A stretch of 64,000 nt of DNA. Origin: Artocarpus heterophyllus. Lineage: Eukaryota > Streptophyta > Magnoliopsida > Rosales > Moraceae. Where the stretch lies: NCBI GenBank assembly GCA_025403435.1, contig CM046340.1, forward strand, positions 15,568,091 to 15,632,090, read 5' to 3'. The translations under genes and the position numbers were made by a program. The notes beneath the pieces were generated by a model. It saw only the letters and a program-made list of their open reading frames with translations. It was not told the DNA's origin and ran no database searches. Below, piece after piece: positions 9,797 to 60,787 of the stretch; within the stretch, counting starts at the first letter, position 1; the number at the start of each line of letters is the position of its first letter.

Positions 9797-11822
9797 TGTT
9801 AGTTATGTATGCTCTAAAGAGTAAAAATGTAATAAGTTTTTGGAGACTTTTTTATCAACAAAGAATTTGTTTATTGTTTATTGTTTATATACCAAATCTT
9901 GTCCTATTTACGTTCATATTTGTTGAATATATGTTAAGCAAACAAAAATCTGAGATTGTCGGTCTAAACCTTTAAGAATTGGGCATATGATAGACAGATT
10001 ATGCGAAAGATACGATTCTTAAGGTGATGGTCTAAAACATAAGATCCACAATCGAGGGAATAAAATTGGGCGCTTTATTCATGTAAAGATTGTTATGTTG
10101 TCTATATCCCAATTGGTAGATTGTTTGTTTTGACCATCGGAGGTGGATTCCATGAATAGAAACATGGACACGTTGTCATAGGTGACGATATGTTGGATCG
10201 GGACATAAAGTGAATTGATTTGGATTAATAATTCTATCTTAGCAAATCGATTCACTTTAGACAATCATTTGTATTGTATCTTAATCCTGAGATGAATAGT
10301 GGGCCTGTTGTTTTGACTTGTGTCTTTTGATGTACCAAAGGGTGACACCCATATCTTAATAGTGGTATGCATGTCGGTACGTTGGAAGCATGACTCTTGA
10401 TAGCGTAGACCTATTATTCATAGATATAAAATCCATAGCTCCTCTTCAGGAGTAGTGATATCCTCTTATATGCATTATCCTATAATTGAAAAACTGGAGC
10501 ACTCAACCATTTGGATACATAGGTGTAATCGAATGGTATACTATCCTTGGATGGTAAGTTTTTTTATGGTGAGATAATGGAACGTAAGATAAAAATAGTC
10601 AGAAAGGTAAGACAGAACTTGTCCTTAAGCCGATAATGGATAATCCTATGAGGATACGATACATTATGCTATGTCATGGAGACTTAGCTATACGGGCTTC
10701 GTAATTCTATGTAGTTCGAGAGTGCAGCTCCAAGCTTTTAGTGGAGTAGCGTTGGAGTTGATAATTATGAAATGTATATTTAGGATATTGGGTTTCATAA
10801 TTATCGGGAGCTTGAACTATATAGGTTTATTTGGTCCCCTTTGTTAGCTCACAACATCCTGTAAAGATACGGCGTGCTTTTCCAATAATTGGTGACTGAT
10901 GTTAGATTTATCAGATTGGTTTAAAATTTAGAAGAATCAGATAATTCATGTCTGTTTATCGGTTGAATTAATTTTGTGATAAAATTGATTCAAGATAAAC
11001 TTGTTGAATTATTGGGATCGGATAATTCTTGTCTGTTTATCGATTGATTTAATTTTGAATAAATTAGATCAAAATAAACTTGTAGAATTATTAAGAATTC
11101 ATTTATTTTCTTGGAGATTATCTAGATAAAACTTTATCCTATAGAATCTTGGGTGGAAATAAAAGATTTGTTGAGATATTAATCGACAGTTGGCACGCCG
11201 ATCCTCAAGTTTGGCTTGCCGATGGGCCCTGTTCAGCCTGCCGATCTTCCTGATCGGCCTGCCTATAAGCGAAGCATAAGATCACGCATTTTTACGCAAA
11301 TCTTATCAGATATTGATCCGAATTTGATTCTGATTCAAATTTTTGAGACATAATCTGAAAAGGACGGACCTTAGACCCAACCTCTATAAATAGGGAGTAA
11401 GTCTTAAGAGTTATTTAGATCAATTGAGAGATTAAGTAGGTAGTAAGTCTTAAGAGTTATTTAGATCAATTGAGAGATTAAGAGTGATACTCTGCTGGTG
11501 AGAATCTGAAAACTCCCTAAGAGGTTTTGTTCACAAATCACGAACACTTGCTTTGGGATTGGTTGGAAGGAGAGTCACCTAGTGGAAGAGCTGTACGTGT
11601 GAGCCCACACTCACTCCGATCGTGGATGGAGAATAGAAAAAAAAACCAGTTGGTTGAGGCTCTTCTAGAATGTTACTTCTCTTCACAGATTGTAGGAGCT
11701 CTTCGGCATTCAAAAGTTAGTAAGATCTGGTTAATTTATGCATATAGCATGTCAAACTTGTTTTTTGGAAAATACTCTGATATAAAATTTTTAAAATTCC
11801 ACTGCGTACTATTTTTCCAACA
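9797..11822 (+). mobile_element. solo LTR of Ty1-copia element (copy A)
   Basis: This 2026-bp LTR starts TGTTAG, ends CCAACA and is flanked by a perfect 5-bp duplication ATCCA (9792-9796 and 11823-11827), with no coding region beside it. It is therefore a solo LTR left by recombination between two LTRs. Homologous LTRs lie at 20949-22970 (same strand) and 30031-41030 (opposite strand, split by a later insertion). Copy A has two internal tandem duplications absent from the others: about 81-bp period near 10933-11094 and 46-bp period near 11396-11486. The open frame at 11527-12012 runs across the LTR end and is not a gene. Confidence 0.9.
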
Positions 11823-18892: not shown

Positions 18893-19414
18893 CACTACAA
18901 GAAAAACTACATTTAACAACATATTATTTACAACATGTAGTATTTGAATGTCGTTGAAAAGTAAATACAACGACATCTCCAACAAGCATGTCTTTAATGA
19001 CATTTAAAACAATAATTAACGACATCTATATAGATGCCGTATTAAATGTCTCCTTTTAATGACAATAGTTTAGTGTCGTTAAATTATTTAACGACAAGTA
19101 GGAGATATCGTCAAAGCCTTGGAGATTCTACGACACCCCTTATAGACGACATCTTGACCAATATCGTCTATAAGGGTTGTCGTAAAATCTCCAAGACTTT
19201 GACGACATCTCCTACTTGTCGTTAAATAATTTAACAACACTAAACTATTATCGTTAAAATGAGACCTTTAATACGACATCTATATAGATGTCGTTAATTA
19301 TTGTTTTAAATGTCGTTAATGATATCTTTGTTAAAGATGTATGTACTTTTCAACGACATTCAAAAACAACATGTTGTAAATAATACATCGTTAAATGTAG
19401 TTTTTCTTGTAGTA
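18893..19414. mobile_element. CACTA-type foldback MITE
   Basis: The element begins CACTACAAGAAAAACTACAT and ends with the inverse, TGTAGTTTTTCTTGTAGT(A), flanked by the 3-bp duplication TCA (18890-18892 and 19415-19417). CACTA ends and a 3-bp duplication are the signature of the En/Spm (CACTA) superfamily. Nearly the whole 522 bp is one palindrome made of repeated GTCGTTAA/TTAACGAC words around a short centre near 19150. It has no transposase and must be mobilised in trans. Confidence 0.88.
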
Positions 19415-20948: not shown

Positions 20949-22970
20949 TGCTAGAAAGTATAGGGAAAAGTTCTTTGAGACATTTTATCATAAAGAATTT
21001 ATTATTTATATCATATATCAAATATGTAACTGTTTATTATTTATGTTCCACTGTAACTGTTTTTTGAGATATTTTATTAATAAATAATTTATTATTTATG
21101 TCATATATCAAATTTATTCTTTCTATATTCATTTGTGTTGAATGTATGATAAGTAAACAAAAGTCTAAGGCTATTGTTCTAAACCTTTAAGATTATGTAT
21201 ATGATTGACAGATTATGCAGAAGACATAAATCTTAAGATGATGGTCTAAATATAAAAATTCTGCAATTAAGGAAATAAAGTTGAGAACTTTTTCATATTA
21301 AGATTGTTATATTATCTACATCCATAATGGGAGATGACTTGTCTTGGTCATCAGACTAGGACTTTGCGAGTAGAGACATTGGTATATTGTCATTGGTGAC
21401 GATACATTGGATTGGGACTAAATATAAATTAATTTGGTTAATAATTCTATTTGAAAAATCAATTCACTTTAAACAACATATGTGTCATATGTTAATTCTG
21501 AAATGAATTAACAAGTCCGTATTATTAATTTGTGTCTTTTGATGTACCAAATAATGATATCCTAAATCAAATAAAGGAACACATATCAGTATGTTGGAAC
21601 CATGATTCTTGATTGACATAAACTTGGCATTCATAGATATGGAATTCATAGCTCTTTAGTAGAGTTAATAATATCCTTTTATATGTATTATCTTGGAATT
21701 GAAAAACTAGAGCGCTCAATCATTTAGATATATTTGTGTAACTGAATAGTATACTATTTGTATTAGTTATGAATAGTATTCCAATCATGAGATAATGGAA
21801 CATAACATAAATATAATCATGAAGGTGAAACAAAATTTATCCTTAAGCTGATTATTGATATGCTATGGCTTATTAAAGTTTCGTAATTTATGTATAGTTC
21901 AAGATGCAGCTCTAAACTTCTGGTGGAATGGCTTTATAGTTGATAATTGTAAAATGTACGTGTCTGGGACATGTTATTTTATAATTACAAGAGCTTGATC
22001 TATATATGTCTATCAAATCCTCTTTGCTAGCTAAAAAAATTTTCTCTAATAATACGACATATTTTTCCTCAAATTAGTAACTTATGTTAGTTCTTAGATT
22101 GGTTAAAATTCATTTTATTAGATTTTAATGTGTTTAGTTTATTGGTTGAGTTAATTTTGTGAATTAATTCAAGATAACATGTTGAATTATTTGTATATAT
22201 TTTATGTAATATGGAATTATTTGTATATGACTGTTTTAATTAAATAACTTTTGCATTGGGTTACTTGAATTAAAACTAAGACTCTATGAAAGATTCTTAT
22301 GTCAAATAAAATAGGTAATAATTCAATTAGGTCAAAATCAGACGGATACTGGATCGGGTGGATTGTCTGAAGCATAGAAAGATAGAAATCAGGTCAGGCC
22401 CAACCGTCCAATCAACAGGACTACACTAGGGCAAGTCAACCAGCCTGCCACATCAACAATCTACGACTAACACATTTTGTTGCGAGATTTTGATCTACAG
22501 TCAAATTTTGAAGCCCAATTGGATAAGAATGAGTGCCCTACCAATCTTATATATAGAAAATGTGTTCCTATAGTTATTTAGATCACTTGAAAAATTTTGA
22601 GAGAGTATTCTAGCGAGAGAAAACTCTAAAACTTGGATAGAGTTATTGTTTAACATCAGGAACAACAACTGTTAGTTTTCTATTGTGGTTAGAAGGAGAT
22701 GTTACCAAGAGGAAGGTTGAATGACGTGTGCCCACTTATATTTTGATTGTGGAAAAGAGAATAATAAAGACGACTAATTGGTTGCCTCTTCTGATCATGA
22801 TTCTCATGTAGTAGTTCTATAGATTTTGTTAAGTCAACAGTGTGGTTTATGGTCTACTAGAGGTATGAAGATCTTTGATTAATTTATTGTATATAGCATG
22901 TCCAACTCGTTTTATAGAAAAAGGTTGTTAAAATTTTTTTAAAATTCTGCTATGTATTCATTTTTCAATA
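20949..22970 (+). mobile_element. Ty1-copia LTR (copy B), older copy
   Basis: This is homologous along its length to the solo LTR at 9797-11822 and of nearly equal size (2022 bp). Shared words include CTAAACCTTTAAGA, ATGATGGTCTAAA and TTGTCAT.GGTGACGATA, with the same promoter-proximal stretch and 3' end. Its ends have decayed (TGCTAG and CAATA instead of TGTTAG and CCAACA), and no flanking duplication is visible. TGGTGATTAGCGC right after it could be a decayed primer site (compare TGGTATCAGAGC), so it may be a 5' LTR that lost its body rather than a solo LTR. Confidence 0.7.
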
Positions 22971-30030: not shown

Positions 30031-30995
30031 TGTTAGAAAAAGGAGTACACAAAAAAATTTTAAAAATTTTTCAACAAACTATTTTCCATAAACGAGTTAG
30101 ACGTGCCATATACGATAAATTAGTAAAAAAAAAAAATCTTTTTATATGGTGCAAAATTGGAATTGCACTTTTGATAGGAAATCGTATAACAGAACTGTTA
30201 TTGAGAATCATGTCTGAAACAACCTTAATCAACTAATCTTTTCGTTATTCTTTTTTCTACAACCAGAGTACGAGTGGGCACACATCATTCAATTCTCCCG
30301 TCAGTAACTACTCCCCACAATCACAAGAGAAAAATAATTCTTATTGTTCTCTACGTTGAATAATAATTCTGAGAACAATAATTCTATAGAGTGACAAACT
30401 TTCTCTCTCTAAACCTCTCAAGTTACTCCACTTTTTATTTAAATCCATAGAAAAATGTTTCCTATTTATAGTGGTCAGATGGGGACTCATTCTTATTAGA
30501 TTGCGCTTTAAAGTTTGAATCAAAATCAACTCCCACAGCTGAAATGTGTTAGACGCAGATTGCTGACTTGGCAGGGGCTAGTCGACTGGGTAGAAGTGGT
30601 AGATGGGGCCACGCTTTTTCCAGCTCCTAGAGAGCTGCCTAATGTACTTGTTTGAACCAATTGGATAATTTCTACTTTATTTGACCTGAGTATCTTTTAT
30701 AGATTCTCAGATTTAATTCAAATAACCCAATAGAAAACCTATCTGATTAAAATAGTCAAATACAGATATTCCATATTCAAATAAAATAGACTTCAAATAA
30801 TTCAACATGTTTATCTCGAATTACTTCATAAAATTAATTCAACCAATAAACATAAATTATTAAATCCAATTAATCAAATTTTAACCAATTTTAAGAATTA
30901 GCATAAGTTACCAAGATGTGGGACAATCATGCCATATCATTACAGGAAAATATGTGAGCTACCAAAGGGGACCCAATGGACATATATAGATCAAG
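30031..30995 (-). mobile_element. Ty1-copia 3' LTR (copy C), distal part
   Basis: This is the reverse complement of the 3' portion of the LTR family seen at 9797-11822, and its terminus TGTTAG/CTAACA lies at 30031. It is cut at 30995 by the younger LTR element and resumes at 40029. The original LTR is about 1967 bp long. The internal region of the same element follows at 41031 on the minus strand. Confidence 0.85.
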
Positions 30996-33397
30996 TGTGA
31001 CACCCGTTATTCTCCTAAGGGTATTAAGGTAATTAGATTAATTACCTAGTATATATATAAAAAAAAAAATCAGAAAATCTCTCATAATTCGAAACTCTCT
31101 CTCTCTCTACTTTCTCTCTCTAAAAATTCTCTCTCTCTCTCCTCAAAGATCGTCTGAGATTTCGGCATCCGTTTTCGACACCTCCCGCACCAATGGAAAG
31201 CTCTCGACGAGCTGAGTCCAACGAGGTGCCGCGCCGCCCAAAACGCCGCCGGAGGAGACCACACGCGCCGCCCAAAGTGGCGGCAAAACCCATTTCTTTC
31301 CGACGAGATATCTTCGCCGTCCGACGTCCGATCGAGGTGATTCTTGTTCCTACACGACCACCGTGATGAGAGGAACAAAACCCACCCTTGGTGGCAGCTC
31401 AACAACCGCCGGATTGCTCCGCCCGTCTATTGCCGCCGTGCACCGCCGCCCCCATGGTGGAACTCCGCCTTGCCGGAGGAGGTGACTGACACCACCCCTC
31501 CCAATGAGTTCAGAGGATCAAGGGGAGTAAAACCCCTCGATCAATTGCACGGAAGGAGCCGGTTTCGCCGGAGAACGGCCAACGCCGCCGTCAACCGCCG
31601 CGGGAGTCTCCGTTTTGGCTCTTCCCAGCCACGTTTCTTCAAATTGGATGAGGGGAAATGCTCATAGGAGGATGGGTAGCAAAAGCCCTCAGCCAATTTC
31701 AGGTTTCCATCGTCGGAGAATCAAGATCGGAGCTCATCCATTTCTACCGACGTTGTACTTCACGACCCGCTATGTTAGAGGCAGAATTGGGTGAAATTGA
31801 CCCCGCCATTGGACTCAGAAGGGTCGATTTAGGGGGGGTAGGCTCGAGCCCAGCTGCCAACGGACCCCGATTGACGCCGGTCAACGCCGGTCAAAGTCGG
31901 TCAACGCCGATCAACGGTGGTCAACGCCGGTCAACGGCCGGTCAAAGGCCAAAATGGGATTTTGTGATCCGGACCTCCGATCGAAGATCCGAGACCGCCT
32001 CCCGACTCGTTTCGATGCTCTGGATGCAATGGTGACCTCCGTTTGAGCAAATTCCACTCCGATGAAAATCATCCGGTACCGACTGCACGCGAATCGAGGC
32101 GATTCAAACAGCAGTATCGGAATCCAGAATGACGTTTTCAAGAATGTATGATCTCCAGGAAGCATTCCTAGCCATTCATAGTCGCTCGAGGAGCACTACA
32201 GAGGATGCTTCGTAGATACAGCGAGATACAACTGGATCTGCTTTGCTTGGAGTTCAAGATCAAGGGAGTATGGAGCTAACGTTAATTGATTCCAGGATTA
32301 AGAGACTGTTGATAAGCTTGAAAGGTAGGGATTCTATTACTCATCTTTTGTGAGGTTTTTATAGAATTAAAATTGATTGTTTTGCCGCAATATATATATA
32401 TCTATGTTGAACTGATATTATATGTGTATCACATATGAAACTATGACATGGACTCGTCTTGTATTGTACGGCGAGGAACATAATGAATTGACACATGTTA
32501 TAAATTGAGAAGCATGGTTAGGAAAATTAACTCTATTAATAATGATTTAATATAGAGAAATTGTGAGACATGAAAAGGGCGACGGTTACGTCCTTGGGCA
32601 TGAATACCCTAAAAGGTAAAGTAGGGGGAAGGCGATGACGCTTCCTTGGGTTGAAAGTCCCAGAACACACTGTACAGGAATCGATTTGGTGAGGACTCGG
32701 GGCTTGATGTCCCCTCACCGGAACACCCTTGGAATGTTTATAGGGTGATCAAGTGCGCCCATTTGGGTTTCGATGAGTTGAGTGATACTCAATTTAACAT
32801 GGATACCTAGGAACAATGATGATTGGTAATATTTGTATAAATGTGTAATTATGACACTTGGTAATGATTAACTACGGTATCCATAAGATGTGATCATAAT
32901 AAACCTCATAATCTGGAATATGATGTGACTTACTAACCATGCAGATTTTAATGTGGTAATGATAAAAACCTAAAGGTGAGTAATGGCTTTCTCTACTGAG
33001 CATAGTGTTGCTCATACCCTTATATTTTTATCTTTTCAGGACTCACTAAGTGTGAGGTGGCTACGAGAAATATAGTTGAGGACGTGATGTAGCTATATTA
33101 CATTGGGACTGCTTCAATTGTTGAGAATGTTTTTCATGATAATGTAAGCATCAATTGTTACTTTCTGTGACTGTATTACAATGTGTTGAGGGTTAAAATG
33201 ATGATGACAACAGTTTATATTATTAAATTTAAGGTGCTACATTAAAACTGTGGTTTATTTGTCGTTTATATTTTTATTTTTGAGTTGAGAGTTTTCATTT
33301 AAGTCCCGGGCAAATTTTATTTTTAAGGTTTTACTTTTATTATTTATTTTTATTTTATCTCATTAAAAACTGTTAACCCCCATATAGGGGCGTTACA
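30996..33397 (+). repeat. 5' LTR of the gene-carrying element
   Basis: Starts TGTGACACCC, ends GGGCGTTACA. A TATA-like stretch near 31050-31062 is followed by CT repeats (31094-31140), which suggests transcription starts early and that most of the LTR is transcribed leader. The part at 31180-32040 is GC-rich, unlike the rest of the window. I found one difference from the 3' LTR (C at 32054 against T at 38680). Open frames of up to 125 codons on both strands of the GC-rich part occur identically in both LTRs and show no recognisable domain. Confidence 0.93.
31869..31948. promoter_or_regulatory. cluster of W-box cores in the 5' LTR
   Basis: Within 80 bp there are six copies of GGTCAA (TTGACC on the minus strand) plus one forward TTGAC, in an irregular array of GGTCAACGCC-like units. 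TTGAC(C/T) is the core bound by WRKY transcription factors, which act in plant defence and stress responses. The array is therefore a candidate for inducible control of the element. If transcription starts near 31080 it lies in the transcribed leader. Binding is inferred, not shown. Confidence 0.45.
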
Positions 33398-33404
33398 GAA
33401 TTTT

Positions 33405-33417
33405 TGGTATCAGAGCC
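33405..33417 (+). other. primer-binding site
   Basis: TGGTATCAGAGCC begins 8 bases after the 5' LTR end. It is complementary to the 3' end of initiator methionine tRNA, the usual primer for plant LTR retrotransposons. This fixes the left LTR as 5'. Confidence 0.92.
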
Positions 33418-34851
33418 TAGGTTCGGTTAACCTAGGGAGTGTAGCACCACTTTAAAAAATATATTTTTGAGATGGTTTTGAAGCTGAATTTTTATTGTCA
33501 TCATCAAAATGAACCTTCACATTGATTTATACAGTCTAGAGGGATGTAACATGGAAAGGCCATAGAATGAAAATATCAATAGTTATATGAGTACAATAAT
33601 TATATAGAAGGAAAGTATTAATAGTTATGAGGGAATGATAATTATATGGAATGAGTTTATAAGTAGAATGCTTATGAGAGATTCGTATAATATTTGGATC
33701 TATAAGCATATCTAATTCGTATAAACGATGAGAAATTCGTGTAGATACGAGGATTTAATAGCCTTTTGTCTCGTGAAAAACAATAAGAAATATAAGGCTT
33801 GATTTATTGATTTTAAAGTTTGACATAGATATGCCAAATTTTTCGTAATTGATTCAAACCTAAGTAATGATTATGTGTGGATTCGATGGAGCACATAAGT
33901 GTCAATAACTTTTCTTAAAAGTTCTATTTATTTGAGGAATATGATATAAGTTGGGAATCATGGTATTGAATCTTGAGAGAGATAAATGTTAGACTTTTGG
34001 TCTGTTGAGACTGTGTAAAGTCTAGAATGCATGAATCTCAAAATTGGAATATTTCGTTACGTACATTGTATTTAAGTGTATCAGTGAATCTTTTGGTTAC
34101 CTAAGGTTTTGTTATATGAGGAAATTATATATTGTATGAGTAGAATTGTGGGGATTGTAGATGTTCTTAAGTAGTAACATCTAGTGTCTTTGTTCGTTGA
34201 TATGGTCTACGTTGAAAGACGTAAATCGTATTGATTTCAAGGTTAGTCACATTCTAAACCCTTGGTAGCAATGATGATGAATCCATTGATAGATGTTGAG
34301 TATTAGGAATAACATATGGGTGTATGCATTGTTCAATAAGGTTTTGATTAAAACAAAATTATTTGAGTTGGATCATTCAGGAAGATCCTTGTTGTCGTTA
34401 AATTAGATTTGTTGTTTATAGTTAACTTTATCTATAGTGGGCTTTGAATTGGGTTTAAGATTCATACGAATTGGTTTTCAATTTTATGTTTGTTATTTAA
34501 CTCGTTCTAAATGTGTTAAGGCCCGAAACAACCTGACCATTTTCAACTTAGAACATTTGGGCCTAGTTCAAATCCTAAATCAGTTTGATTCACACTGTCT
34601 CTCCCACGTGGTCTCTATACGTGTCATATACAGTGGTTTAATCATTGTTTATATATACGTTTACTGTGCATAGGAGCTTATTTCTCTGAGTTCACTTTTT
34701 CTCTCTTAATTTGTTATTTTCTCTCTAAATCGCAAATCCTCTTCTTTTTCATTAAAAATTCTTCTTTTCCTCTAAAAGAAGAAGGAATTCTAGGATTCTG
34801 CAATTTACTATCTTAATTTTTCCTTTCTATTTACTCTTCTTTCATCTCATC
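33418..34851 (+). other. leader region of the element, no gene recognised
   Basis: This is untranslated-looking sequence between the primer site and the first intact frame. No gag motif is visible in any frame, and the 78-codon frame at 34437 shows nothing recognisable. A CT-rich stretch (34690-34850) directly precedes the ATG at 34852. Confidence 0.55.
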
Positions 34852-35373
34852 ATGGACCCAAAGTACCAACACATGAGAAAGTATTTCCCATCACTCTCCC
34901 AAAAGATTCTTAGAAAGAAATACAAGGCTAGAATTACTCGGTTGTGGATTCTTATGCGTTTTGGTATCCCTTGTGATGTGAGAATGTTAATAGAGGGGAA
35001 AATCCGTCCGAGTGACTTTAGTCAAGATGTCGGTTTACCAGGAACAGGTACCAGTCGTAGTGCAATGAAAAGAAGAGCTCGTGCCATCGTGGTCACTTGT
35101 AACAAATGTGGAAGACAAAATTGTAACGGTAAATGTACTTCACCTGGTTATATGTCTACGAATAGAGAGGATAAAATAAGGTTTTGTAGGGATGGACTTT
35201 CAAAGGAGAACTTGGATAGCATCCATCCTCCTCTCCACGGTCACCCTAGTGGATATGTTCAAGGAGCTATTTTTAAACTCTGGCCTAAATTTTATACAGA
35301 AAGACAACGCCTCAGGAATATGGTATTTCTAGATCCTGTTTGCCAAGCCATAAGAAAACTGGATGGGGAATAA
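34852..35373 (+). CDS. basic cysteine-finger protein, 173 aa, inside the LTR element
   Basis: An intact frame from ATG. Residues 1-30 are strongly basic. Residues 31-51 form a mixed hydrophobic segment (LWILMRFGIPCDVRMLIEGK). An Arg/Lys cluster at 69-77 (RSAMKRRAR) is followed directly by a possible zinc site, C83-x2-C86-x4-C91-x3-C95. The spacing is not the retroviral Gag knuckle (CX2CX4HX4C), because the His is replaced and the last gap is shorter. An Arg-rich run next to a small Cys finger, preceded by a hydrophobic helix, recalls the small nucleic-acid-binding proteins of betaflexiviruses (carla- and vitivirus type). This is resemblance of architecture only. A role in binding nucleic acid is inferred. 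The alternative is a highly altered Gag or a captured host zinc-finger gene. The frame is open in an element without gag, suggesting it is useful or recently acquired. Confidence 0.6.
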   Translation: MDPKYQHMRKYFPSLSQKILRKKYKARITRLWILMRFGIPCDVRMLIEGKIRPSDFSQDVGLPGTGTSRSAMKRRARAIVVTCNKCGRQNCNGKCTSPGYMSTNREDKIRFCRDGLSKENLDSIHPPLHGHPSGYVQGAIFKLWPKFYTERQRLRNMVFLDPVCQAIRKLDGE

Positions 35374-36016
35374 GTCATCGCTCTATAAAGGTTATTTAGT
35401 CTTTACTTATTTGAAGCAGTTTTAGCTGATGTTCAACAGTTTGTGTTTTTCTTTTACTCAGAATATTTGCTTTTGTGTTTGAAATAATTGTGATTATTAG
35501 ATTGATACAGTAAGTGTTAATATCTTATTTAATTTATGATTTTCTTAAATATATATATAATAAAATATATTATCTTATCAGACACGTTACATACGGTACA
35601 GTAATATGTTTGAATTTTGAAAAGCTTATCCAGATATTTCAAGATTTGTGTCTCAAATTTCAAAAGTTCTACAGTATTTGTCGTTTATATTAAATTTCTA
35701 GACTTGGTGTATATTTGTCAAAAAGTCTACAGTTGTGTCATGAGGGTCTTCTGTCAAATTGTTCTCAATTGTCAAAAGTTATACAATTAGAGTCTAATCT
35801 TTTTCAAAAAGTGAATCAGATTTTCTGTAAACTATCAATCACCTTATCTTACTTTCTTATCCGCACAAGATTTTGTTTAAATCTTTGGATTACCTTTTCA
35901 TTACCTACTCGTCTATCTCTTTAGCCCTTTTTGTATATTTCTCATCTTTAAAATCTCATGTAGAACCCGAAGTCTAAGTGGAGCAGACATTAAGCAACCA
36001 CTTCTATAAACCAAAT
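35374..36016 (+). other. spacer between the two frames of the element
   Basis: AT-rich 643-bp spacer with no recognisable domain. Words such as GTCAAA and TTCAAA..GT recur at 35590-35800. The in-frame extension of the LOG frame upstream to 35978 starts at GTG, so the ATG at 36017 is the likely start. Confidence 0.5.
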
Positions 36017-36667
36017 ATGTCTACCTCCCAGTCCACGAAGAAAATAAAGAATGTCTGTGTCTTTTGTGGTTCCAGCCTTGGAAAAGATAAAGCTTATTTA
36101 GAAGCTGCAAATCACTTAGGGCAAGTCCTAGCACGCAAGGAGATTAACATAATCTATGGGGGTGGTAGTATAAAAATGATGGTAAATATGGCACTAGCAG
36201 CTAGGTCTAGCGACGCTACTGATGTAAAAATTTGGCCTCATATTCCAGTTGAAGGAAACCTTTGTAAGGAAGCCATAGGTAAGGGAGAAGGAGTCAGGAG
36301 TATCCCTAAAAATTTTAAAGACATAATCTATAATTCTGATGCTTTTATAGCATTACCTGGTGGTCTAGGTACTCTTGAGGAAATATTTATAGTTGCTTGT
36401 GGGCAATTGTTGGGCTTTTATTCCAAACCTTTGGGTCTGCTGAACGTAAAGGGTTTTTATGACGGTCTTTTGAAATTTCTAGATTACGCTGTGGAAGAAA
36501 ACATCACTACAGAATCGGAGAGACAAATCTTTGTTACTGCTTCAACAGCTGAGGAATTGATAGATAAAATGCAAATCATACATCCAGAATCCGACACTGC
36601 AACATCCAAGCTTGAATGGGAAAGGGAAAGCCGGGAGCGGCCAATTGATTTGAATCTCCATCTGTAA
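36017..36667 (+). CDS. LOG-like protein (cytokinin phosphoribohydrolase family), probably catalytically altered
   Basis: A 216-aa intact frame, matching the usual LOG length. Family members release active cytokinin bases from riboside 5'-monophosphates. Visible family motifs are VCVFCGSS (13-20), IIYGGGSI (45-52), SDAFIALPGGLGTLEE (107-122, including the nucleotide-binding PGGxGTxxE motif) and KPLGLLN. Two conserved sites differ. The GLMG that normally follows GGGSI reads KMMV. The MHxRK block that normally supplies the catalytic Arg just before SDAFIALPGG reads PKNFK, so the Arg-Lys pair is Asn99-Phe100. Plant LOG genes have several introns and this frame has none, suggesting capture through a spliced transcript. 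Classic activity is therefore doubtful. A regulatory, binding or changed role, or slow decay, is possible. It is transcribed, if at all, from the LTR. Confidence 0.88.
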   Translation: MSTSQSTKKIKNVCVFCGSSLGKDKAYLEAANHLGQVLARKEINIIYGGGSIKMMVNMALAARSSDATDVKIWPHIPVEGNLCKEAIGKGEGVRSIPKNFKDIIYNSDAFIALPGGLGTLEEIFIVACGQLLGFYSKPLGLLNVKGFYDGLLKFLDYAVEENITTESERQIFVTASTAEELIDKMQIIHPESDTATSKLEWERESRERPIDLNLHL

Positions 36668-37607
36668 TCTTTTTGTTTTATCTTTGGCATGTAGGCATGT
36701 GTGTCCGTATTTCGTGTGTTACGAATAACCGTTTGCCTTGTATTCTGTGTTTCTTGTGGTACGTCGTTGTTAAATCTTTTAGATTCATTGAGCCTAATGC
36801 CGGGATGGCTGGATACGGAGTACTTGATGCTCTCGAAACGCATCCTTCTTAAGGTCCGATCTTTTGTTTATCGATGTTTTTGTATTCTATAAGCATGCAT
36901 GATATGGATAGCTGGTATACGGAGTGCCTTGTACTCTCGAAACGTATCCGTATTATGTTTGTAATGTGTAATATTCTGTTAATATTATGTGGAAGTACCA
37001 GAGTCAGTTATGGGGATATTCCATATGAAATATGAGTATATTATTTGGATTGAATGTTTGTGTCATGAGGATAGCTGTTTAATGAAAAATATGTCGGGTA
37101 TGTTTGCAACCAGAGATTCCGTTTAATATCTCTATGAATAAGTTTAATGTATGGTTTTGAATATAAGTGTTTGTGATATATGTTTTATGATTATGTTTTA
37201 GTTTATTAGTTGAGGTATGAAATCAAATATATTTGACTTTTCCTTACTCAAAAAGGAAAAGGAACCTAAAGATGAAGTATATAAAATTTCTCTGGCAATC
37301 TCCTTAAATGTGATTGTAAATCACAGTCCATGGACAATGAAGGACTGGAATCATGATATGGTCAATATGTATACCTGATCAGATTCTTAGACTATTATAC
37401 GGTGTTATAAGTTGAAACTTGTCAGAAATACTCTCATTGAGGGATTTAGGAGTAAGATTTATTATGCAAGTAAATAAGTGGAGTTACGATAACTTAAATT
37501 TGGAGGACAAAGAACATTAACGGTTTAGACTCAGAATTGGAATCATAGTGGAATCATAATTTTTACTAGTATTACTAAAATTGGAATTTCGAGGACGAAA
37601 TTTCTTT
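36668..37607 (+). other. 3' untranslated part of the element
   Basis: No gene is recognised. A near-repeat is visible: GATGGCTGGATACGGAGTACTTGATGCTCTCGAAACGCATCC (36802-36844) and GATAGCTGGTATACGGAGTGCCTTGTACTCTCGAAACGTATCC (36907-36949), about 105 bp apart. The block TTCGAGGACGAAAT near 37588 is typical of the region just before the 3' LTR in plant gypsy elements. Confidence 0.55.
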
Positions 37608-37621
37608 AAGAGGGGTAGAGC
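37608..37621 (+). other. polypurine tract
   Basis: AAGAGGGGTAGAGC lies immediately before the TGTGACACCC start of the 3' LTR. It is the expected primer for plus-strand DNA synthesis during reverse transcription. Confidence 0.85.
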
Positions 37622-40023
37622 TGTGACACCCGTTATTCTCCTAAGGGTATTAAGGTAATTAGATTAATTACCTAGTATATATATAAAAAAAAAAATCAGA
37701 AAATCTCTCATAATTCGAAACTCTCTCTCTCTCTACTTTCTCTCTCTAAAAATTCTCTCTCTCTCTCCTCAAAGATCGTCTGAGATTTCGGCATCCGTTT
37801 TCGACACCTCCCGCACCAATGGAAAGCTCTCGACGAGCTGAGTCCAACGAGGTGCCGCGCCGCCCAAAACGCCGCCGGAGGAGACCACACGCGCCGCCCA
37901 AAGTGGCGGCAAAACCCATTTCTTTCCGACGAGATATCTTCGCCGTCCGACGTCCGATCGAGGTGATTCTTGTTCCTACACGACCACCGTGATGAGAGGA
38001 ACAAAACCCACCCTTGGTGGCAGCTCAACAACCGCCGGATTGCTCCGCCCGTCTATTGCCGCCGTGCACCGCCGCCCCCATGGTGGAACTCCGCCTTGCC
38101 GGAGGAGGTGACTGACACCACCCCTCCCAATGAGTTCAGAGGATCAAGGGGAGTAAAACCCCTCGATCAATTGCACGGAAGGAGCCGGTTTCGCCGGAGA
38201 ACGGCCAACGCCGCCGTCAACCGCCGCGGGAGTCTCCGTTTTGGCTCTTCCCAGCCACGTTTCTTCAAATTGGATGAGGGGAAATGCTCATAGGAGGATG
38301 GGTAGCAAAAGCCCTCAGCCAATTTCAGGTTTCCATCGTCGGAGAATCAAGATCGGAGCTCATCCATTTCTACCGACGTTGTACTTCACGACCCGCTATG
38401 TTAGAGGCAGAATTGGGTGAAATTGACCCCGCCATTGGACTCAGAAGGGTCGATTTAGGGGGGGTAGGCTCGAGCCCAGCTGCCAACGGACCCCGATTGA
38501 CGCCGGTCAACGCCGGTCAAAGTCGGTCAACGCCGATCAACGGTGGTCAACGCCGGTCAACGGCCGGTCAAAGGCCAAAATGGGATTTTGTGATCCGGAC
38601 CTCCGATCGAAGATCCGAGACCGCCTCCCGACTCGTTTCGATGCTCTGGATGCAATGGTGACCTCCGTTTGAGCAAATTTCACTCCGATGAAAATCATCC
38701 GGTACCGACTGCACGCGAATCGAGGCGATTCAAACAGCAGTATCGGAATCCAGAATGACGTTTTCAAGAATGTATGATCTCCAGGAAGCATTCCTAGCCA
38801 TTCATAGTCGCTCGAGGAGCACTACAGAGGATGCTTCGTAGATACAGCGAGATACAACTGGATCTGCTTTGCTTGGAGTTCAAGATCAAGGGAGTATGGA
38901 GCTAACGTTAATTGATTCCAGGATTAAGAGACTGTTGATAAGCTTGAAAGGTAGGGATTCTATTACTCATCTTTTGTGAGGTTTTTATAGAATTAAAATT
39001 GATTGTTTTGCCGCAATATATATATATCTATGTTGAACTGATATTATATGTGTATCACATATGAAACTATGACATGGACTCGTCTTGTATTGTACGGCGA
39101 GGAACATAATGAATTGACACATGTTATAAATTGAGAAGCATGGTTAGGAAAATTAACTCTATTAATAATGATTTAATATAGAGAAATTGTGAGACATGAA
39201 AAGGGCGACGGTTACGTCCTTGGGCATGAATACCCTAAAAGGTAAAGTAGGGGGAAGGCGATGACGCTTCCTTGGGTTGAAAGTCCCAGAACACACTGTA
39301 CAGGAATCGATTTGGTGAGGACTCGGGGCTTGATGTCCCCTCACCGGAACACCCTTGGAATGTTTATAGGGTGATCAAGTGCGCCCATTTGGGTTTCGAT
39401 GAGTTGAGTGATACTCAATTTAACATGGATACCTAGGAACAATGATGATTGGTAATATTTGTATAAATGTGTAATTATGACACTTGGTAATGATTAACTA
39501 CGGTATCCATAAGATGTGATCATAATAAACCTCATAATCTGGAATATGATGTGACTTACTAACCATGCAGATTTTAATGTGGTAATGATAAAAACCTAAA
39601 GGTGAGTAATGGCTTTCTCTACTGAGCATAGTGTTGCTCATACCCTTATATTTTTATCTTTTCAGGACTCACTAAGTGTGAGGTGGCTACGAGAAATATA
39701 GTTGAGGACGTGATGTAGCTATATTACATTGGGACTGCTTCAATTGTTGAGAATGTTTTTCATGATAATGTAAGCATCAATTGTTACTTTCTGTGACTGT
39801 ATTACAATGTGTTGAGGGTTAAAATGATGATGACAACAGTTTATATTATTAAATTTAAGGTGCTACATTAAAACTGTGGTTTATTTGTCGTTTATATTTT
39901 TATTTTTGAGTTGAGAGTTTTCATTTAAGTCCCGGGCAAATTTTATTTTTAAGGTTTTACTTTTATTATTTATTTTTATTTTATCTCATTAAAAACTGTT
40001 AACCCCCATATAGGGGCGTTACA
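37622..40023 (+). repeat. 3' LTR of the gene-carrying element
   Basis: It is identical to 30996-33397 at a constant offset of 6626, except for one difference found by eye (T at 38680 against C at 32054). The W-box cluster recurs at 38495-38574. Because the two LTRs of an element are identical at insertion, this near-identity over 2402 bp means a recent insertion. Confidence 0.93.
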
Positions 40024-41030
40024 TCAAGCTTCTATAATTATAAAATAAAAATAACATATCCCCCACATATATTTTATAATTATCAACTCTAAAGTTATTA
40101 TGCTAAAAGTTTAGAGCTACACTCTCGAACTATATATAAATTACAAAAGTCTAATGAGTTAATCGTCTATAACATATCATAATGTGTAACATCCTCAAAT
40201 GATATTCATAACCGACTTAAGAAGAAATTCCGTTTTACTTTCTCAATTATATTTATCTTATGTTCCATTACCTCACCATTGGAATATTTACTATTCATAA
40301 CCAATACTAATAGTATACTATTTGGTTACACATATGTATCATAATGTTTAAGCGCTCCAATTTTTAATTAGAGGATAATGTCTATAAGAGAATATCATTG
40401 ACTCTATAGAAGAGATATGGATTTCATATCTATGAATAGCAAGTCTACGTCATTCAATAGTCATGTCTCCAACATACTGGTATGCATACTTTCATATAAT
40501 TCAAGACGTCACCCTTTGGTACATCAAATTATACAAATCAAGAATATGGTCCCATTTATTCATTTTTGGGTTAGGATGTAACACATATAATTATCTACAG
40601 TGAATTTATTTATTCAAATGGTATCATTAATTAAATCAATTCTTCTTAGTCTTGATCCAATATATTGTCACCAATAACAATATACTAATGTCTTTACTCG
40701 TGGAATCCCACTTCAATGACTAAGACAAGTCATCTTTTATTAGAGATATAGACAACATAACAATCTTAATATGAATAAAGTCAATTGCGGACCTTTTATA
40801 TTTAGTATATTACCTTAAGATTCATGTCTTTCGTATAATTTGTTTATATCATATGATTGATATTAAAGGTTTAGATTAACATTCTTAGATTTTGTTTGCT
40901 TATCATACATTTAATCTAAATGAACACAAAGAGGACGCATTTGATATACGAAATAAATATTAAACTCTTTATTGAGTAAATGTCTTAAAAATAATTATAT
41001 CATTTAATCCTTTGGGCACCGAGTCTAACA
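40024..41030 (-). mobile_element. Ty1-copia 3' LTR (copy C), proximal part
   Basis: This is the continuation of the LTR begun at 30031, after the TCAAG duplication at 40024-40028. It ends with the terminus CTAACA at 41025-41030, which is TGTTAG on the minus strand. The purine-rich tract (GGGCAAGTGAGAG on the minus strand) sits directly outside, at 41031-41045, so this is the 3' LTR of the minus-strand element. Confidence 0.85.
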
Positions 41031-50800: not shown

Positions 50801-53800
50801 GCAGAAGTCCCTGATGACACAGCAGAAAGAGCTCGAACCTGCAATGAAAGGTGGAGAATGAAATACAACAGAATAACAAAAGGGGAAAAAAACTCACAAA
50901 ATGCACAAAGTGAAAGGTGTAATTAATAACTCTAAAAAAATTGAATAAAAAGAAAAAAGAGCAAGCATAGGTAGAAAGGGCATGTAGAGTTTTATTTTTT
51001 GAGCAAAAGTATTTTGATACTGAAAATTTTGTAAACGAGAATCAAAACAAAATTCAAGGAAAAAAACCTCTTGTTTTGGTTCACAGCCAGCACTTTGTAG
51101 GAAAGGTACCAAGTCAGGACCACCATACTCCAACAACTCATTTTCAAGGCCTATATCAATCATTGCTCGGTACAAGTACTCATGAAATAATCTATCAGGT
51201 GATCTGACACCAAGCTGAACAATCTGGCATATATATTTGTTCCGAGAGGCCTGATCAAGAGCCAATCTTGGAGCCACAGATCTGAGTGGAGATCCAAATT
51301 CTCCACGTGAAGGAACACCTTTCAAAGAACGTAATGCACTAATGACAATCTCATAGCACATTTCACGCTGAGCAAGTGCACGTTCACGAACTGCTGCATC
51401 AAGTTGGTCATTAAAAGCATCACCTGCTGGGTCAAGAGCTTGTGCCTTTTGAAGAGGTAAGTGAACAACAGCTTCATAGAACCTGCAATGCAATCAGTTT
51501 TTGTGTTAGATGCATTGACCAAATTAAGAATTGGCAATCAAATACATTGGAATACCCTCTATTCAACCAACCTTAAATCCTCAAACCGTTTGCAGACGGT
51601 TTGTAAATCTGCAGACTCTGGAACTTTACTTAAGAAATTGAAGGCCTCTCTAGCAAGATTCTCCTTCTCCTCAGGATCTGGAATTACCGCAGCTCTTTCA
51701 AGGCACTCCACAGCTAGAAAAAACTTGTGATCGGACTCCTTGTAATAGCTAGCACAACCCTCTCGTAATCTCGCACTTATATCATCAACGGTCCCCCTGC
51801 CATCAGCACCGGTATAACACTAGGAGAAAATGAACAAGTCAACATAAGGAAATCTGTAATAAAGAATATCAATGTTAGATAAAGCAGGCTAGTAAATAAG
51901 AGAAGAACAAATTTTGCGTGTGTTTTTAGGGGCCCATTTTAGTTGCTTTTAGGATCACCTTTTAGAGGCTTTAAAAGGACAATGGTTTATTCTTGCATAC
52001 CTCCACCAGAGCAGATATAAGCAGTGTAGCCATGCGGTCACCCTCTTCAGAACAAACTAGCTGATGAAATGTCAATTGGACTAATGTTTGTCGTAGATCA
52101 GTGTCAAACCCCTGAACCAAGCGAGTCACATGATGCTGACAAAGAAGTTGGAGCAGAAACAGGGCTTCACTGGATCTAAGAAGCAACTGCCTGATACATT
52201 CCATTGCCCTCACCTGTGGAACAAGAAACCAAGTAGCAAAAGAGAATGAAAAATAATGGTCTAGTGACCTTTTGTCAAGTACAGCAGGACAACAATTTTA
52301 ACTTACCTCCATGGCAGCCAGCTCTGCAGGGCTATATGGTAATCTCTGCCTTTTATTAGATGCACCGCTACCACTAGACTCAGTACTCCGTGAGTAAGCA
52401 CCAAATAAGTTTCTCACCATACTCCGGTCACGAGCACCAATTTCAGAACCAGTTCCATAAAGAATTGAACCAGTCAAGTCTCCCAGACCAGCAACACAAC
52501 CATAGAGTCCCCTTCTCTGATTCCTTCTAGACCTTAAAAACTTCTCTAAAGACCGAAGTTTGTTTTCAAGAACTTGCATAGCCTGAATTGACAGTCTACA
52601 TGAGAGAAGTCCAGTTTCAGATAAGGCATCTGCAGAACCTCCTTTCACAACCATGACAGGAAGTTCCCACACAGGAAAAAGTACCCTAGAAGAGCACAAG
52701 CAAAGACCTTCATAAGCACCTGAAAACACAGGCTCAGCCTCCTGAACAACCTGACCCATGCTGAATCCCCCAGAAGCTGTCCTAGTGTTTGACAATGCAT
52801 TACTACCCTCAAGTTGTGGCATTCCAACAAGTCTTGGATCCTCAAAGGCTTCAGCAGCTTTTTCGGTAACAGCATTGCTTATAAGATTTTCAGAATATAC
52901 TATCCTTGCCGCCAGCATCAAACACATTGCAGCTGCCTCACCAGCTCCAAAACGATTAAAGAAATCTTCTAAAATTGACCTTGATGAATTAGATTCAAAC
53001 AATCTTCTCAAAATATCCACAGGCCTGTTATACACAATTTCCATCATGCCTATGGTACTAAAAACAACAAGTCTTCTCCTGGGCAGTATATGTTGGGTTG
53101 TAAGATCCCCTCTGGCCCAGAGTTTTAGGGATGCATTTTCAGGGGATTCCCAAGAGTTTTCAAGTCCAGTAAATTCAACTTCAGAATATAGGGAGTGCAC
53201 TGTTGTTGCGGTATCAGGATTTGGTAAAACATCTGCTACAAACAGCATTCGCCCTTCAACTGATAAAGAAGAAACAGACTCTCTTAATGCCCGGGTACTT
53301 CTTGAACTCATCGCTGATGTACCTGGGACAGACAATTGTGTGCTCGAATCCCGACTTACAACAAGAAGAGAAGACATGGTTGGTGGAGATGAATCAGAAA
53401 GTACAAGAGTTCCAGCAGAATAATATGCTGTCTCAACCTTCAGTGAGAGATCTTCATTCTGGGGTCTACCAACATGAGACATGGCGCCAAAGGCAAGCCC
53501 ACTGCTGACACCCAAGGGAGGAGAGGGCCTGGTAGCAACAACTTTTAGACAAGTAGGTTTGTAATGGTTGGTATTAAAACCGCCTAAATTTCCACTAGAT
53601 GAAGAAGTTGTGAGATACATCCTTCTGCCATCTGATAAAACAGCAACAAGGTGTAGAGATTTTGATTCCAGCATGGATAGAGGTGATATGCAAACAATAG
53701 ATGACTTTGCCAACCGATTTGGGGCCCTTTGTCCAGTTAATTGCCTACCCCCATAATGTGCATCCCTCTGATTGATCACATTCCTTTCTTCTGCCACTTT

Positions 53801-55301
53801 CTTCAACGGCCCATCACCATTAGGGCCCACAACAAAAACCTGAAGTTTCATTTCTTCAGTTCGTGCATATAAAATGCTCCTTTCATTATCAACAACTAGT
53901 TCAACAATGGGGTCAACAACTCCAAACTTAAAGACATTTGGCACAACCCATCTGCAAAATAAGTGTTTGCATCAATACAGTGTAATAGTATAAGTGAGAA
54001 AACCACAATTTCTAACTCTATGCTTCAAAGCTGACAAACTACAAGGGGAATTGTTATGAGCAAGTTATGAAATTAGATAACAACAAAGTAATTGACTCTT
54101 AAAATTGCTTCAACAATCAACAACTACCTGATTCAACCTTTAAATCACAAACAGTTACAGTGCAGAAGCTTGATATCTTTTTACCACAGAAAACATCAAG
54201 CACTATATTACGTAAATACCTTGATATTACACTGCTAAACCCAGATGTCAGGCAAACTTTCCGGCAACGCCTTTGCCAGCCCGAACCAGTTGAGTAATGA
54301 AGTTCATAGATGTGGCCATCACGGCCAGCCAAGAAAATACGACCTGCCTTCGTACATGCAATACAAGTCATGGTGACTCCATCTGATGGTACTGTATATT
54401 CTGGCAAAGGCTGTAGTGAGACCTCTGCATATGGATCTGCATTGTCACCTCCTCCAGAGCAGCACACTCCTACAAGAACTAACTGACAACAAGAAAAGGA
54501 TGGTGAGATTTTTTGGCATTAATATAATTTTATATATGTATATATGAAACAGTTACTAGTGTCTTGTTGGCATTCTGCAACAATTAAAATAGATCCATAT
54601 TGTACTTAAAGCAATGCGTATCACCTCCTTTCTTATGTTGTGCGTATTCCTCTAATTTTAATGACTACCTGTCGTTCAATGAAATTTTTTGTTATCGGTA
54701 TTACTTGTCTCACAACAGCTCTTGCCCAACTTTCGATGTTATGTGACAAATGAAGTGTGATTCTTCGATCGTGAATATTACAAATACAGTTTTACCAAAT
54801 AGTATTTTACTAATTGAAGAACCATAACTCAATTCACATATTAGTTTGTATTAAAAAGATGCAATAAAATGGAATCCAAGGTACTATGAGTATTTTTTTT
54901 ATTGCACATAATTTTTTCCCTTTTTCCTCCTTCAAAGAGACCCCATTAGATATGCCCACCATATTGCTAGGGTTTGCACTTGGGTCCCACTTTTAGAAGC
55001 TTTTAAACATCCTATTTGACATGTATCGACAATTATATCACACAAATTTTAGCTTATTTCGACAGCCAAAAGAAAATAAACGTTGTCCAACGATTCGTCT
55101 TTATAAGAAGCATTTTCAAAGCACATAGTACATACTACGGGAAGCAAACAAAAAAACCAAGGAATTGTTACCACCTCAACAGGTGTTGCTAAAACTAACA
55201 GATACTGAATTGCTTCAACAAAGACACCAGGTTTTGACTTTGCAAGACCAACAGCACATATAGCTTGCTCTTCTCCACTGTAGTCTGCACACTGACCATC
55301 C
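47874..55301 (-). CDS. NUP155: nuclear pore protein NUP155 (N-terminal exons missing)
   Basis: Scaffold nucleoporin of the inner pore ring: an N-terminal beta-propeller followed by a long alpha-solenoid. I deduce eleven exons with GT..AG borders: 55301-55175, 54482-54220, 53951-52307, 52213-52001, 51819-51572, 51482-51068, 50838-50633, 50020-49663, 49168-48950, 48826-48498 and 47991-47874 (stop 47876-47874). They total 4141 nt, all in phase, about 1380 residues. Recognisable pieces are GEEQAICAVGLAKSKPGVF, CTKAGRIFLAGRDGHIYEL, the 548-residue central exon with VDPIVELVVDNERSILYAR, and the end RGFRELEESL...PFDRH. The first codon of the first exon seen is shared with an upstream exon, which I cannot find. 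About 115-120 N-terminal residues are absent compared with the known plant protein (about 1460 aa). Only 84 bases upstream lies the edge of a stack of copia elements, so the first exons are either beyond 64000 or lost. No stop or frameshift was seen inside the exons. Confidence 0.93.
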
Positions 55302-55623: not shown

Positions 55624-55887
55624 TGTGGAATTCTCATCCTTAATCAATTAGGGATTATAGGGATCTTATCCCTTATTCTCATCCTTAATCAATTAAGGAT
55701 TATAGGGATCTTATCCCTTATTTTTTGCTATGCTGTAATAAAGATAATTTCTTTCCTTAATTAGTGGAGAAATATCCTCCGTTAGTTAATTAGCCCCTGT
55801 TTTTGTGGCTTGCAAATCAGCAGCCTGCCTATATGTATCTGATTTATCAAATAAAGAATTAAGGAGAATTATTTTCTGATTTCTACA
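55624..55887 (+). repeat. 5' LTR of element I (264 bp)
   Basis: TGTGGAATTC...TTTCTACA. It contains two copies of a 45-bp unit (TCATCCTTAATCAATTA / ATAGGGATCTTATCCC). The 3' LTR has three copies. Confidence 0.92.
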
Positions 55888-55927
55888 TGGCATCAAAGCC
55901 CTTCTCTCTCTGAAAACTTAATTCCCC

Positions 55928-57480: not shown

Positions 57481-57489
57481 AGTGAGATT

Positions 57490-58410
57490 ATGTTATGGCA
57501 TTTTCGTCTTGGACATCCAAATTTTATGTATCTTGAAAAACTGTTTCCTTCTATGTTTATCAATAAAAGCCCAAAGTTGTTCAGTTGTAAAATTTGCCAA
57601 TTAGCCAAACATACTCGTACCAATTATCCCAGTCTCCCATACAAGCCATCTCAACCATTTGCCATGATACATAGTGATGTGTGGGGCCCATCAAGAATAA
57701 AAAATTTAACAAGAACACGATGGTTCGTGTCATTTGTCGACGATCACACTAGGTTGACATGGATATTTTATAATGAAAGAAAAATCCGAAGTGGGTCAAA
57801 TATTCGAACATTTCAACACCATGATACAAACCCAATTCCACACCAAGATTCAAGTCCTGAAAACCGACAATGCCAAAGAATATTTCAAAAATATCCTGGG
57901 CTCATATCTCCTAAGTCAAGGGATAGTTCACTTAAGTTCTTGCATTGACACACCCCAACAAAATGGAGTTGCAGAGAGAAAAAACAGACACTTATTGGAA
58001 GTAGCCCGATCACTCATGTTTTCCACACATGTCCCGAAACATTTTTAGGGAGAGGCAGTACTTACAGCAACATATCTCATTAATAGAATGCCTTCTAGAA
58101 TTCTTAAATTCCAAACCCCTTGCCAAACTTTTCTTCAAATATTTCCACACACCAAAATAGTCACCTTCTTGGAACCTAAAATATTCGGATGCACGGCATT
58201 TGTCCGTATCCATCAAAAATACCGCAGCAAATTGGATCCCAAATCCATTAAATGTATATTCCTTGGGTATTCTTCGCACCAAAAGGGCTACAAATGTTAC
58301 TCTCCCATCACCATGAAAATATACAACTCCATGGATGTCACATTCTTTGAACATCAGGCATATTATCCCAAACCTTCAATTCAGGGGGAGAACATGAGTG
58401 AATATCAGTT
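57490..58410 (+). pseudogene. element I integrase region
   Basis: HHCC zinc-binding segment (LWHFRLGHPNF...CKICQLAKH, 57490-57610) and catalytic core with SDVWGPSRI, VDDHTRLTW and TPQQNGVAERKNRHLLEVAR. The reading frame shifts near 57490 and again near 57775. A TAG at 58046-58048 replaces a Trp codon (expected FWGEAV). The segment ends in the GCTAFVRIHQKYRSKLDPK block and a TGA at 58412-58414. Confidence 0.9.
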
Positions 58411-60466: not shown

Positions 60467-60473
60467 GGGGGAG

Positions 60474-60782: not shown

Positions 60783-60787
60783 TTTAA

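What the first reader, a model, noticed from the sequence alone, without database searches (positions are those of the whole stretch)
36017..36667. LOG-like cytokinin-enzyme gene carried inside a young LTR retrotransposon
Seen: an intact intronless 216-aa LOG-family frame lies between primer site and polypurine tract of a complete LTR element with near-identical LTRs. Known: plant LOG genes have several introns and set local cytokinin levels. Inference: the gene was captured from a spliced transcript and is now copied with the element, under LTR control. Each new insertion would spread a LOG-like gene.
Basis: partly seen in the sequence, partly recalled or inferred. Interest (0 to 1): 0.88.

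Follow-up and report, generated by a model that had tools for sequence, protein, structure and literature searches.

The report
Retrotransposon with LOG-like and carlavirus-like genes
A recently inserted plant retrotransposon with no recognisable copying genes of its own carries two intact genes, one related to a plant hormone-activating enzyme but lacking a key active-site residue and one related to a carlavirus zinc-finger protein, and the pair would likely help the element by altering host gene control and RNA silencing, which remains untested.

Summary
A 216-aa LOG-family frame (36017-36667) lies between primer site and purine tract of a complete LTR element, 30996-40023. The LTRs differ at 1 of 2402 bases, the target duplication is TCAAG, and two paralogous empty sites lie in the same window.

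The interpretation needs changing. (1) The element shows no gag-pol and has a second intact ORF (34852-35373), not in the finding. It belongs to a family of 855 proteins, known from plant genomes, related to carlavirus cysteine-rich/nucleic-acid-binding proteins. In a fetched plant-like contig a member sits directly behind a Ty3/gypsy-type integrase. (2) The LOG-like protein is unlikely to be a fresh host capture: apart from a near-copy, its listed relatives are 39-49% identical, and like it most of them end in LxLxL. (3) The catalytic arginine is asparagine (also in near-copy P0001), so cytokinin release is doubtful. LOG-type domains in Ty3/gypsy elements of Citrus and Populus are already in print.

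Best reading: a gag-pol-less LTR element carrying an old accessory pair, a carlavirus-type zinc-finger protein (likely silencing suppressor/regulator) and a likely non-catalytic LOG-fold protein with an EAR-like tail. The host genome could not be searched, so copy number, expression and host parent gene are untested.

The parts
30996..33397 (+). 5' LTR (TG...CA), 2402 bp
   Evidence: 99.96% identical to 37622-40023
33405..33417 (+). primer binding site TGGTATCAGAGCC (initiator-Met type, tRNA end recalled)
34852..35373 (+). ORF A, 173 aa, carlavirus CRP/NABP-type zinc-finger protein
36017..36667 (+). ORF B, 216 aa, LOG-family protein with Asn99 in place of the catalytic Arg and C-terminal LNLHL
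37591..37620 (+). GAGGACGAAATTTC motif and purine tract AAGAGGGGTAGAG
37622..40023 (+). 3' LTR
30991..30995 (.). target site duplication TCAAG, left copy (right copy 40024-40028)
21869..22336 (-). paralogous repeat that shows the empty insertion site (78%)
10475..11013 (-). second paralogous empty site (74%)

Best explanation
This is a young LTR retrotransposon without recognisable gag-pol that carries two intact accessory genes, a relative of the carlavirus zinc-finger protein and a LOG-family protein missing its catalytic arginine, which would likely act together to weaken host silencing and bend host transcription rather than to make cytokinin. Shown: a complete insertion with near-identical LTRs, TSD, primer site and purine tract; no detectable gag-pol; two intact ORFs; a family of related zinc-finger ORFs in plant genomes, one of them directly downstream of a Ty3/gypsy-type integrase. 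Inferred: both ORFs are old accessory genes of Ty3/gypsy elements (probably an Athila-like lineage) that came to lie in an element with chromovirus-like ends, mobilised in trans. Inferred: the LTR drives one transcript from which ORF A and, by splicing or re-initiation, ORF B are made. Inferred: ORF A works like carlavirus CRPs (nuclear zinc-finger silencing suppressor and regulator). Inferred: ORF B uses the LOG fold as a dimeric scaffold whose C-terminal LxLxL tail would dock TOPLESS-type corepressors.
For: LTR identity, TSD and empty sites. All 23 stop-free stretches of at least 45 aa outside the two ORFs were scanned: no match above a Pfam cut-off and no reverse transcriptase, gag, protease or retroviral integrase even at E<=1. 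ORF A relatives: 15 proteins at 43-96% identity, 14 of them with precomputed Carla_C4; of the 16 rows of A1, 9 match Carla_C4 and 8 match Viral_NABP at E<=0.001. An alignment search gives 855 proteins, 120 listed, and every organism named among these is a plant (Populus, Xanthoceras, Acer, Hibiscus, Orobanche, Rhamnella). Cys86 and Cys91 are kept in 48 of 48 rows, Cys83 in 44, Cys95 in 46. L001 has an integrase ORF (rve, Integrase_H2C2) at 194-1594 followed by the ORF A homologue at 1799-2347, 50% identical. ORF A against L001: codon-position differences 73/53/95 over 172 codons, most at the third position. ORF B: Asn99 where 111 of 121 rows have Arg; Glu122 kept, as in 119; PMC8234997 names the conserved Arg and Glu (R99, E122 in CgLOG) as proposed critical for catalysis (passages). 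LxLxL ends 88 of 117 non-canonical rows and 0 of 4 canonical rows, and 14 of 22 rows after strict thinning, with the residues between the leucines varying. Carlavirus CRPs as silencing suppressors, and CVB p12 as a transcription factor inducing hyperplasia: PMC10219291 and PMC12172455 (passages).
Against: ORF A itself is below Pfam's cut-offs (16.4 bits against 23; 13.0 against 20.9), and its predicted fold (pTM 0.43) finds carlavirus proteins only at meaningless E-values of 2.4 and 3.9. No expression data and no TOPLESS binding test. The window's tail lacks the Lys/Arg run found before the tail in 84 of 88 tailed rows, and the tail is predicted with low confidence (pLDDT under 50 at 198-216). 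The LOG frame evolves fast and has lost several conserved residues (Gly53, Gly56, Trp129, His135), so it may be decaying. Linkage of LOG-like and ORF A-like genes in other elements rests only on one shared longest-contig length (8723; P0049, P0150), not tested against chance. L001 shows no LOG frame. Chromovirus and Athila assignments and the EAR reading rest on recalled motifs. Only 4 canonical LOG rows served as control.
Confidence: 0.5

Rival explanations
1. Passenger: the element swept up the two ORFs from another element and they are now neutral cargo; they are open only because this copy is young, and the LOG is a decaying relic.
For: Longest end branch of the LOG tree (1.27); catalytic Arg, Gly53, Gly56, Trp129 and His135 lost; LTRs nearly identical, so little time for stops to appear.
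Against: Both frames open, both cysteine and tail motifs kept after deep divergence; near-copies with open frames exist (P0001 99%; P0121 134 of 139).
Confidence: 0.27
2. Active cytokinin enzyme: ORF B still releases cytokinin bases and favours dividing cells in which the element transposes.
For: LOG fold and PGGxGTLEE motif intact; 81 of 88 tailed relatives keep the Arg.
Against: Asn in place of the Arg proposed as critical; the loop near it is poorly predicted (pLDDT under 50 at 79-95); the neighbouring Lys is kept in only 15 of 121 rows.
Confidence: 0.1
3. Recent capture of a host LOG mRNA.
For: Intronless frame inside an LTR element.
Against: Listed relatives other than P0001 reach only 49%; shared LxLxL tail with many other LOG-like proteins, absent from 4 of 4 canonical rows; extra-ORF LOG domains already known in Ty3/gypsy elements.
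Confidence: 0.06

Closest known systems
LOG / YgdH domain in Ty3/gypsy elements of Citrus and Populus trichocarpa (PMC9289625: passages, section 12; it cites Steinbauerova et al. 2011, which I did not see; that its LOGL4-like ORFs lay in two Athila-like elements is recalled)
   Same: A LOG-family extra domain inside Ty3/gypsy-type LTR elements.
   Different: Those consensus elements were found through their reverse transcriptase; this element shows no gag-pol, its LOG lacks the catalytic Arg, and it has a second, carlavirus-type ORF. Section 12 mentions neither the LxLxL tail nor such a companion.
Carlavirus cysteine-rich / nucleic-acid-binding proteins (Pfam PF01623, PF05515)
   Same: Basic stretch followed by a Cys4 cluster; family members pass the Pfam cut-offs (P0150 both, the L001 protein one of two).
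   Different: About 180 aa with its own conserved C-terminal part, found in plant chromosomes and in one case beside an integrase instead of in an RNA virus genome; Cys spacing 2-4-3 is shorter than the carlavirus spacing as recalled.
Plant LONELY GUY proteins (At2g37210, PDB 2a33)
   Same: Fold and PGGxGTxxE motif.
   Different: About 41% identical, catalytic Arg replaced, LxLxL tail, inside a mobile element.
Orchid Ty3/gypsy elements with an AlkB-type m6A demethylase (PMC9289625, passages and section 12)
   Same: An LTR element that acquired a gene type also known from plant RNA viruses.
   Different: Different gene; large (25 kb) elements with gag-pol and tested enzyme activity.

Membership tests
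LTR retrotransposon (complete insertion) | Two direct LTRs, TG...CA ends, TSD, primer site, purine tract | tested here: met
Autonomous Ty3/gypsy element | gag-pol between the LTRs | tested here: not met
   Only two ORFs over 130 aa, neither gag-pol; 23 of 23 further stop-free stretches of at least 45 aa without a retroelement domain
Chromovirus (Tekay/Del) lineage | Reverse transcriptase phylogeny | not testable with these tools
   No reverse transcriptase present; initiator-Met primer site and GAGGACGAAATTTC end motif are recalled hints only
LONELY GUY phosphoribohydrolase | LOG fold and PGGxGTxxE motif | tested here: met
LONELY GUY phosphoribohydrolase | Conserved catalytic Arg | tested here: not met
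   Asn99; role of the Arg from PMC8234997
LONELY GUY phosphoribohydrolase | Releases cytokinin base from the nucleotide | not tested
   needs an enzyme assay
Carlavirus-type CRP / NABP | Match to Pfam Carla_C4 or Viral_NABP above cut-off | tested here: inconclusive
   Window ORF below both cut-offs; relatives pass
Carlavirus-type CRP / NABP | RNA silencing suppression | not tested
   needs a bench assay
EAR-motif protein | LxLxL motif | tested here: met
   C-terminus IDLNLHL
EAR-motif protein | Binds a TOPLESS-type corepressor | not tested
   needs a binding assay

The most novel reading that the evidence does not exclude
Plant Ty3/gypsy elements share a mobile two-gene counter-defence cassette, a carlavirus-type zinc-finger suppressor plus a LOG-fold corepressor adaptor with an EAR tail, which has been passed between element lineages and even into a gag-pol-less element that spreads it. 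Plant RNA viruses and plant retrotransposons would then hold versions of one and the same suppressor gene.
Probability: 0.3. Interest if true: 0.85.

Novelty: new variant of a known kind. Interest (0 to 1): 0.6.

Why it matters
LOG-type domains in Ty3/gypsy elements were noted before, with no role proposed in the section I read. The companion carlavirus-like gene, the LxLxL tail and the lost catalytic arginine point to a regulatory, anti-silencing role instead of hormone synthesis, and each point can be tested with one protein. It would also give carlavirus silencing suppressors a family of relatives in plant genomes. Practically, some Populus proteins named LOGL10 (P0008, P0016, P0040) carry the same tail and may be transposon ORFs annotated as hormone genes.

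Tried and rejected
Search of the host genome for copies and parent LOG genes: no answer in 11 tries. Viral contigs: 8 scans with ORF B, ORF A, alignment A1 and five relatives (P0197, P0064, P0149, P0180, P0150), none confirmed. Genome contigs: 117 stretches matched a pattern, 1 confirmed, L001. Segmental duplication: rejected by TSD and two empty sites. Gag-pol remnants: none in 23 of 23 stretches of at least 45 aa; the few listed matches, among them Zn_ribbon_NOB1, TPR_XPO7, TRF, ZZ, Phage_int_SAM_3 and DUF5677, are all below their cut-offs. Shorter stretches were not scanned. Fold comparison of ORF A with viral structures: 8 matches, none with E<=0.001. Rfam on the window: 0 matches at gathering thresholds.

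Papers (open-licence library; most subscription journals are not held). 'Carla_C4' + retrotransposon: 0. Carlavirus + retrotransposon + nucleic acid binding protein + LTR: 0. Athila + carlavirus: 1, on viral proteases (listing only). EAR motif + cytokinin riboside + LOG + retrotransposon: 1, a wheat pericarp paper (listing only). Steinbauerova + retrotransposon + LOGL: 0. LONELY GUY + retrotransposon + captured: 3, of which one, PMC9289625, was used. Two broader searches were seen as listings, and two that gave background papers. So the carlavirus-like companion ORF and the LOG tail were not found in print by those searches. PMC7264820 (passages): extra ORFs in plant LTR elements, no occurrence of LOG, YgdH or cytokinin in its main text. 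PMC11593424 (passages) on plant LOGs: no occurrence of 'transpos'. PMC2782294 not held.

Recent host capture and an active cytokinin enzyme were considered and rated low (see rivals).

Full report
What is there. The window holds one complete LTR element at 30996-40023. Its LTRs (2402 bp each) differ at a single base, 32054. TCAAG is duplicated at both ends, and the joined flanks with one copy removed align without a break to two related repeats in the same window, at 22336-21869 (78%) and 11013-10475 (74%). A primer site TGGTATCAGAGCC lies at 33405-33417, seven bases behind the 5' LTR, and a purine tract lies next to the 3' LTR. One substitution in 2402 sites is 4e-4 per site (Poisson 95% range 1e-5 to 2.3e-3), so the insertion is recent; I give no date because host and rate are unknown.

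No gag-pol was found. Between the LTRs only two ORFs exceed 130 aa. Outside them one search printed 23 stop-free stretches of at least 45 aa; all 23 were scanned and none has a Pfam match above cut-off or a retroelement domain. The element would therefore need help in trans.

Family membership by fold and motif is firm. Its nearest relative is P0001 (99%; a cluster of 8 member sequences on 12 contigs); the other 119 listed proteins are 39-49% identical (best 120 of 5289 listed). In the 121-row alignment the position of the conserved Arg is Asn only in the window and P0001; Arg stands in 111 rows. Glu122 is kept, as in 119 rows. Gly53, Gly56, Trp129 and His135 are also changed. [quoted passage not shown] Loss of phosphoribohydrolase activity is therefore likely, as an inference. 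The model is poor at residues 79-95, near the active site, and at the tail 198-216.

The C-terminal tail. The window protein ends in IDLNLHL. Of 117 rows that I did not count as canonical LOGs, 88 end exactly in LxLxL; of 4 canonical rows (P0113, P0114, P0116, P0117, chosen by name or by the MHQRKAEMA motif), none. Of the 29 without it, 11 are 200 aa or shorter, 8 are 201-212 aa, 3 are full-length with a changed tail and 7 are longer than 228 aa. The pattern occurs once in 23,535 other positions of the 117 rows. After thinning, 51 of 65 rows (2 of them canonical) and 14 of 22 (1 canonical) have it; in those 14 the letters between the leucines vary. A Lys/Arg run precedes the tail in 84 of the 88, but not in the window protein. 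LxLxL is known as an EAR repression motif (recalled; one search gave only a listing). Reservation: the rows are related and Populus-rich, and four canonical rows are a thin control.

The tree (65 rows) puts the window protein on the longest end branch (1.27), in a group with P0009, P0031, P0041 and P0097 supported 94/86, which is not a starred value; its exact place is unsure.

ORF A (34852-35373) is not in the finding. Alone it scores below Pfam's cut-offs. But 14 of its 15 hits carry precomputed Carla_C4, and of the 16 rows of A1, the window included, 9 match Carla_C4 and 8 match Viral_NABP at E<=0.001. An alignment search gives 855 proteins, 120 listed; the organisms named are all plants (Populus, Xanthoceras, Acer, Hibiscus, Orobanche, Rhamnella), and some clusters hold hundreds of member sequences (P0156 566, P0188 315), as expected of repeats. 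The unlisted rest may include carlavirus proteins themselves. Cys86 and Cys91 stand in 48 of 48 rows, Cys83 in 44 and Cys95 in 46, after a basic KRRA stretch. The predicted fold has low global confidence (pTM 0.43). Its viral fold search is not significant, although two of the eight matches are named nucleic acid binding protein of Red clover vein mosaic virus and RNA silencing suppressor of Helleborus mosaic virus.

Where ORF A belongs. The one DNA relative found is L001, 3330 bp, binned in a bacterial MAG but looking like plant DNA. It holds a Ty3/gypsy-type integrase ORF (rve 60.4 bits, H2C2 48.2 bits) and, about 200 bases behind its stop, the ORF A homologue in the same direction, 50% identical. 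The stretch GKACHLPVELEHKA in that integrase is Athila-like by recall. A pyrimidine-rich run ending in CTGCAG lies between the two, as for a spliced downstream gene; this is a suggestion only. L001 has no LOG frame. One pair of hits, P0049 (LOG) and P0150 (ORF A family), lists the same longest contig length, 8723, so the two genes may share a contig there; I could not fetch it and did not test this against chance.

How it most likely works. Shown: insertion, structure, two intact frames, family relations. Inferred: both are long-standing accessory genes of Ty3/gypsy elements, now in an element with chromovirus-like ends (recalled motifs). ORF A would act like carlavirus CRPs, which suppress RNA silencing (PMC10219291, passages) and in one case act as a transcription factor inducing hyperplasia (PMC12172455, passages). 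ORF B would act as a LOG-fold scaffold that presents EAR-like tails. The passenger rival is real, because a copy this young would keep open frames without selection. Against it stand the conserved cysteines and the conserved tail after deep divergence, the excess of third-position changes between ORF A and L001 (73/53/95 over 172 codons), and near-copies with open frames (P0001; P0121, 134 of 139 residues).

What is known. The carlavirus-type companion, the tail and the catalytic loss in a gag-pol-less element were not found in print by the searches.

Verdict. Observation confirmed; interpretation partly supported; new variant of a known kind.

Noticed in passing
L001:194-2347: A contig of a Candidatus Nomurabacteria MAG (DAIEQH010000041.1) looks like plant Ty3/gypsy DNA: integrase ORF followed by a carlavirus-type zinc-finger ORF. 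Probable contamination of the MAG.
   Followed up: partly
window 52298-53944 (-): Open frame with a Nucleoporin_N domain (Nup155-like by recall), probably a piece of a host gene, so the window is partly genic.
   Followed up: partly
window 55624-60783: Ty1/copia-like element with 259-bp direct ends 97.7% identical and gag-pol split over several frames; another copia-like gag starts near 60863.
   Followed up: no
window 18894-19413: About 520-bp near-palindrome (87.7% self-complementary), perhaps a foldback element.
   Followed up: no
window 9836-11013, 21061-22336, 30651-30995 with 40216-40991: Three copies of one repeat; the LTR element sits in the third and the other two serve as empty sites.
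   Followed up: yes
P0008, P0016, P0040 (Populus): Proteins named LOGL10 in NCBI carry the LxLxL tail; they may be transposon ORFs annotated as host hormone genes.
   Followed up: partly
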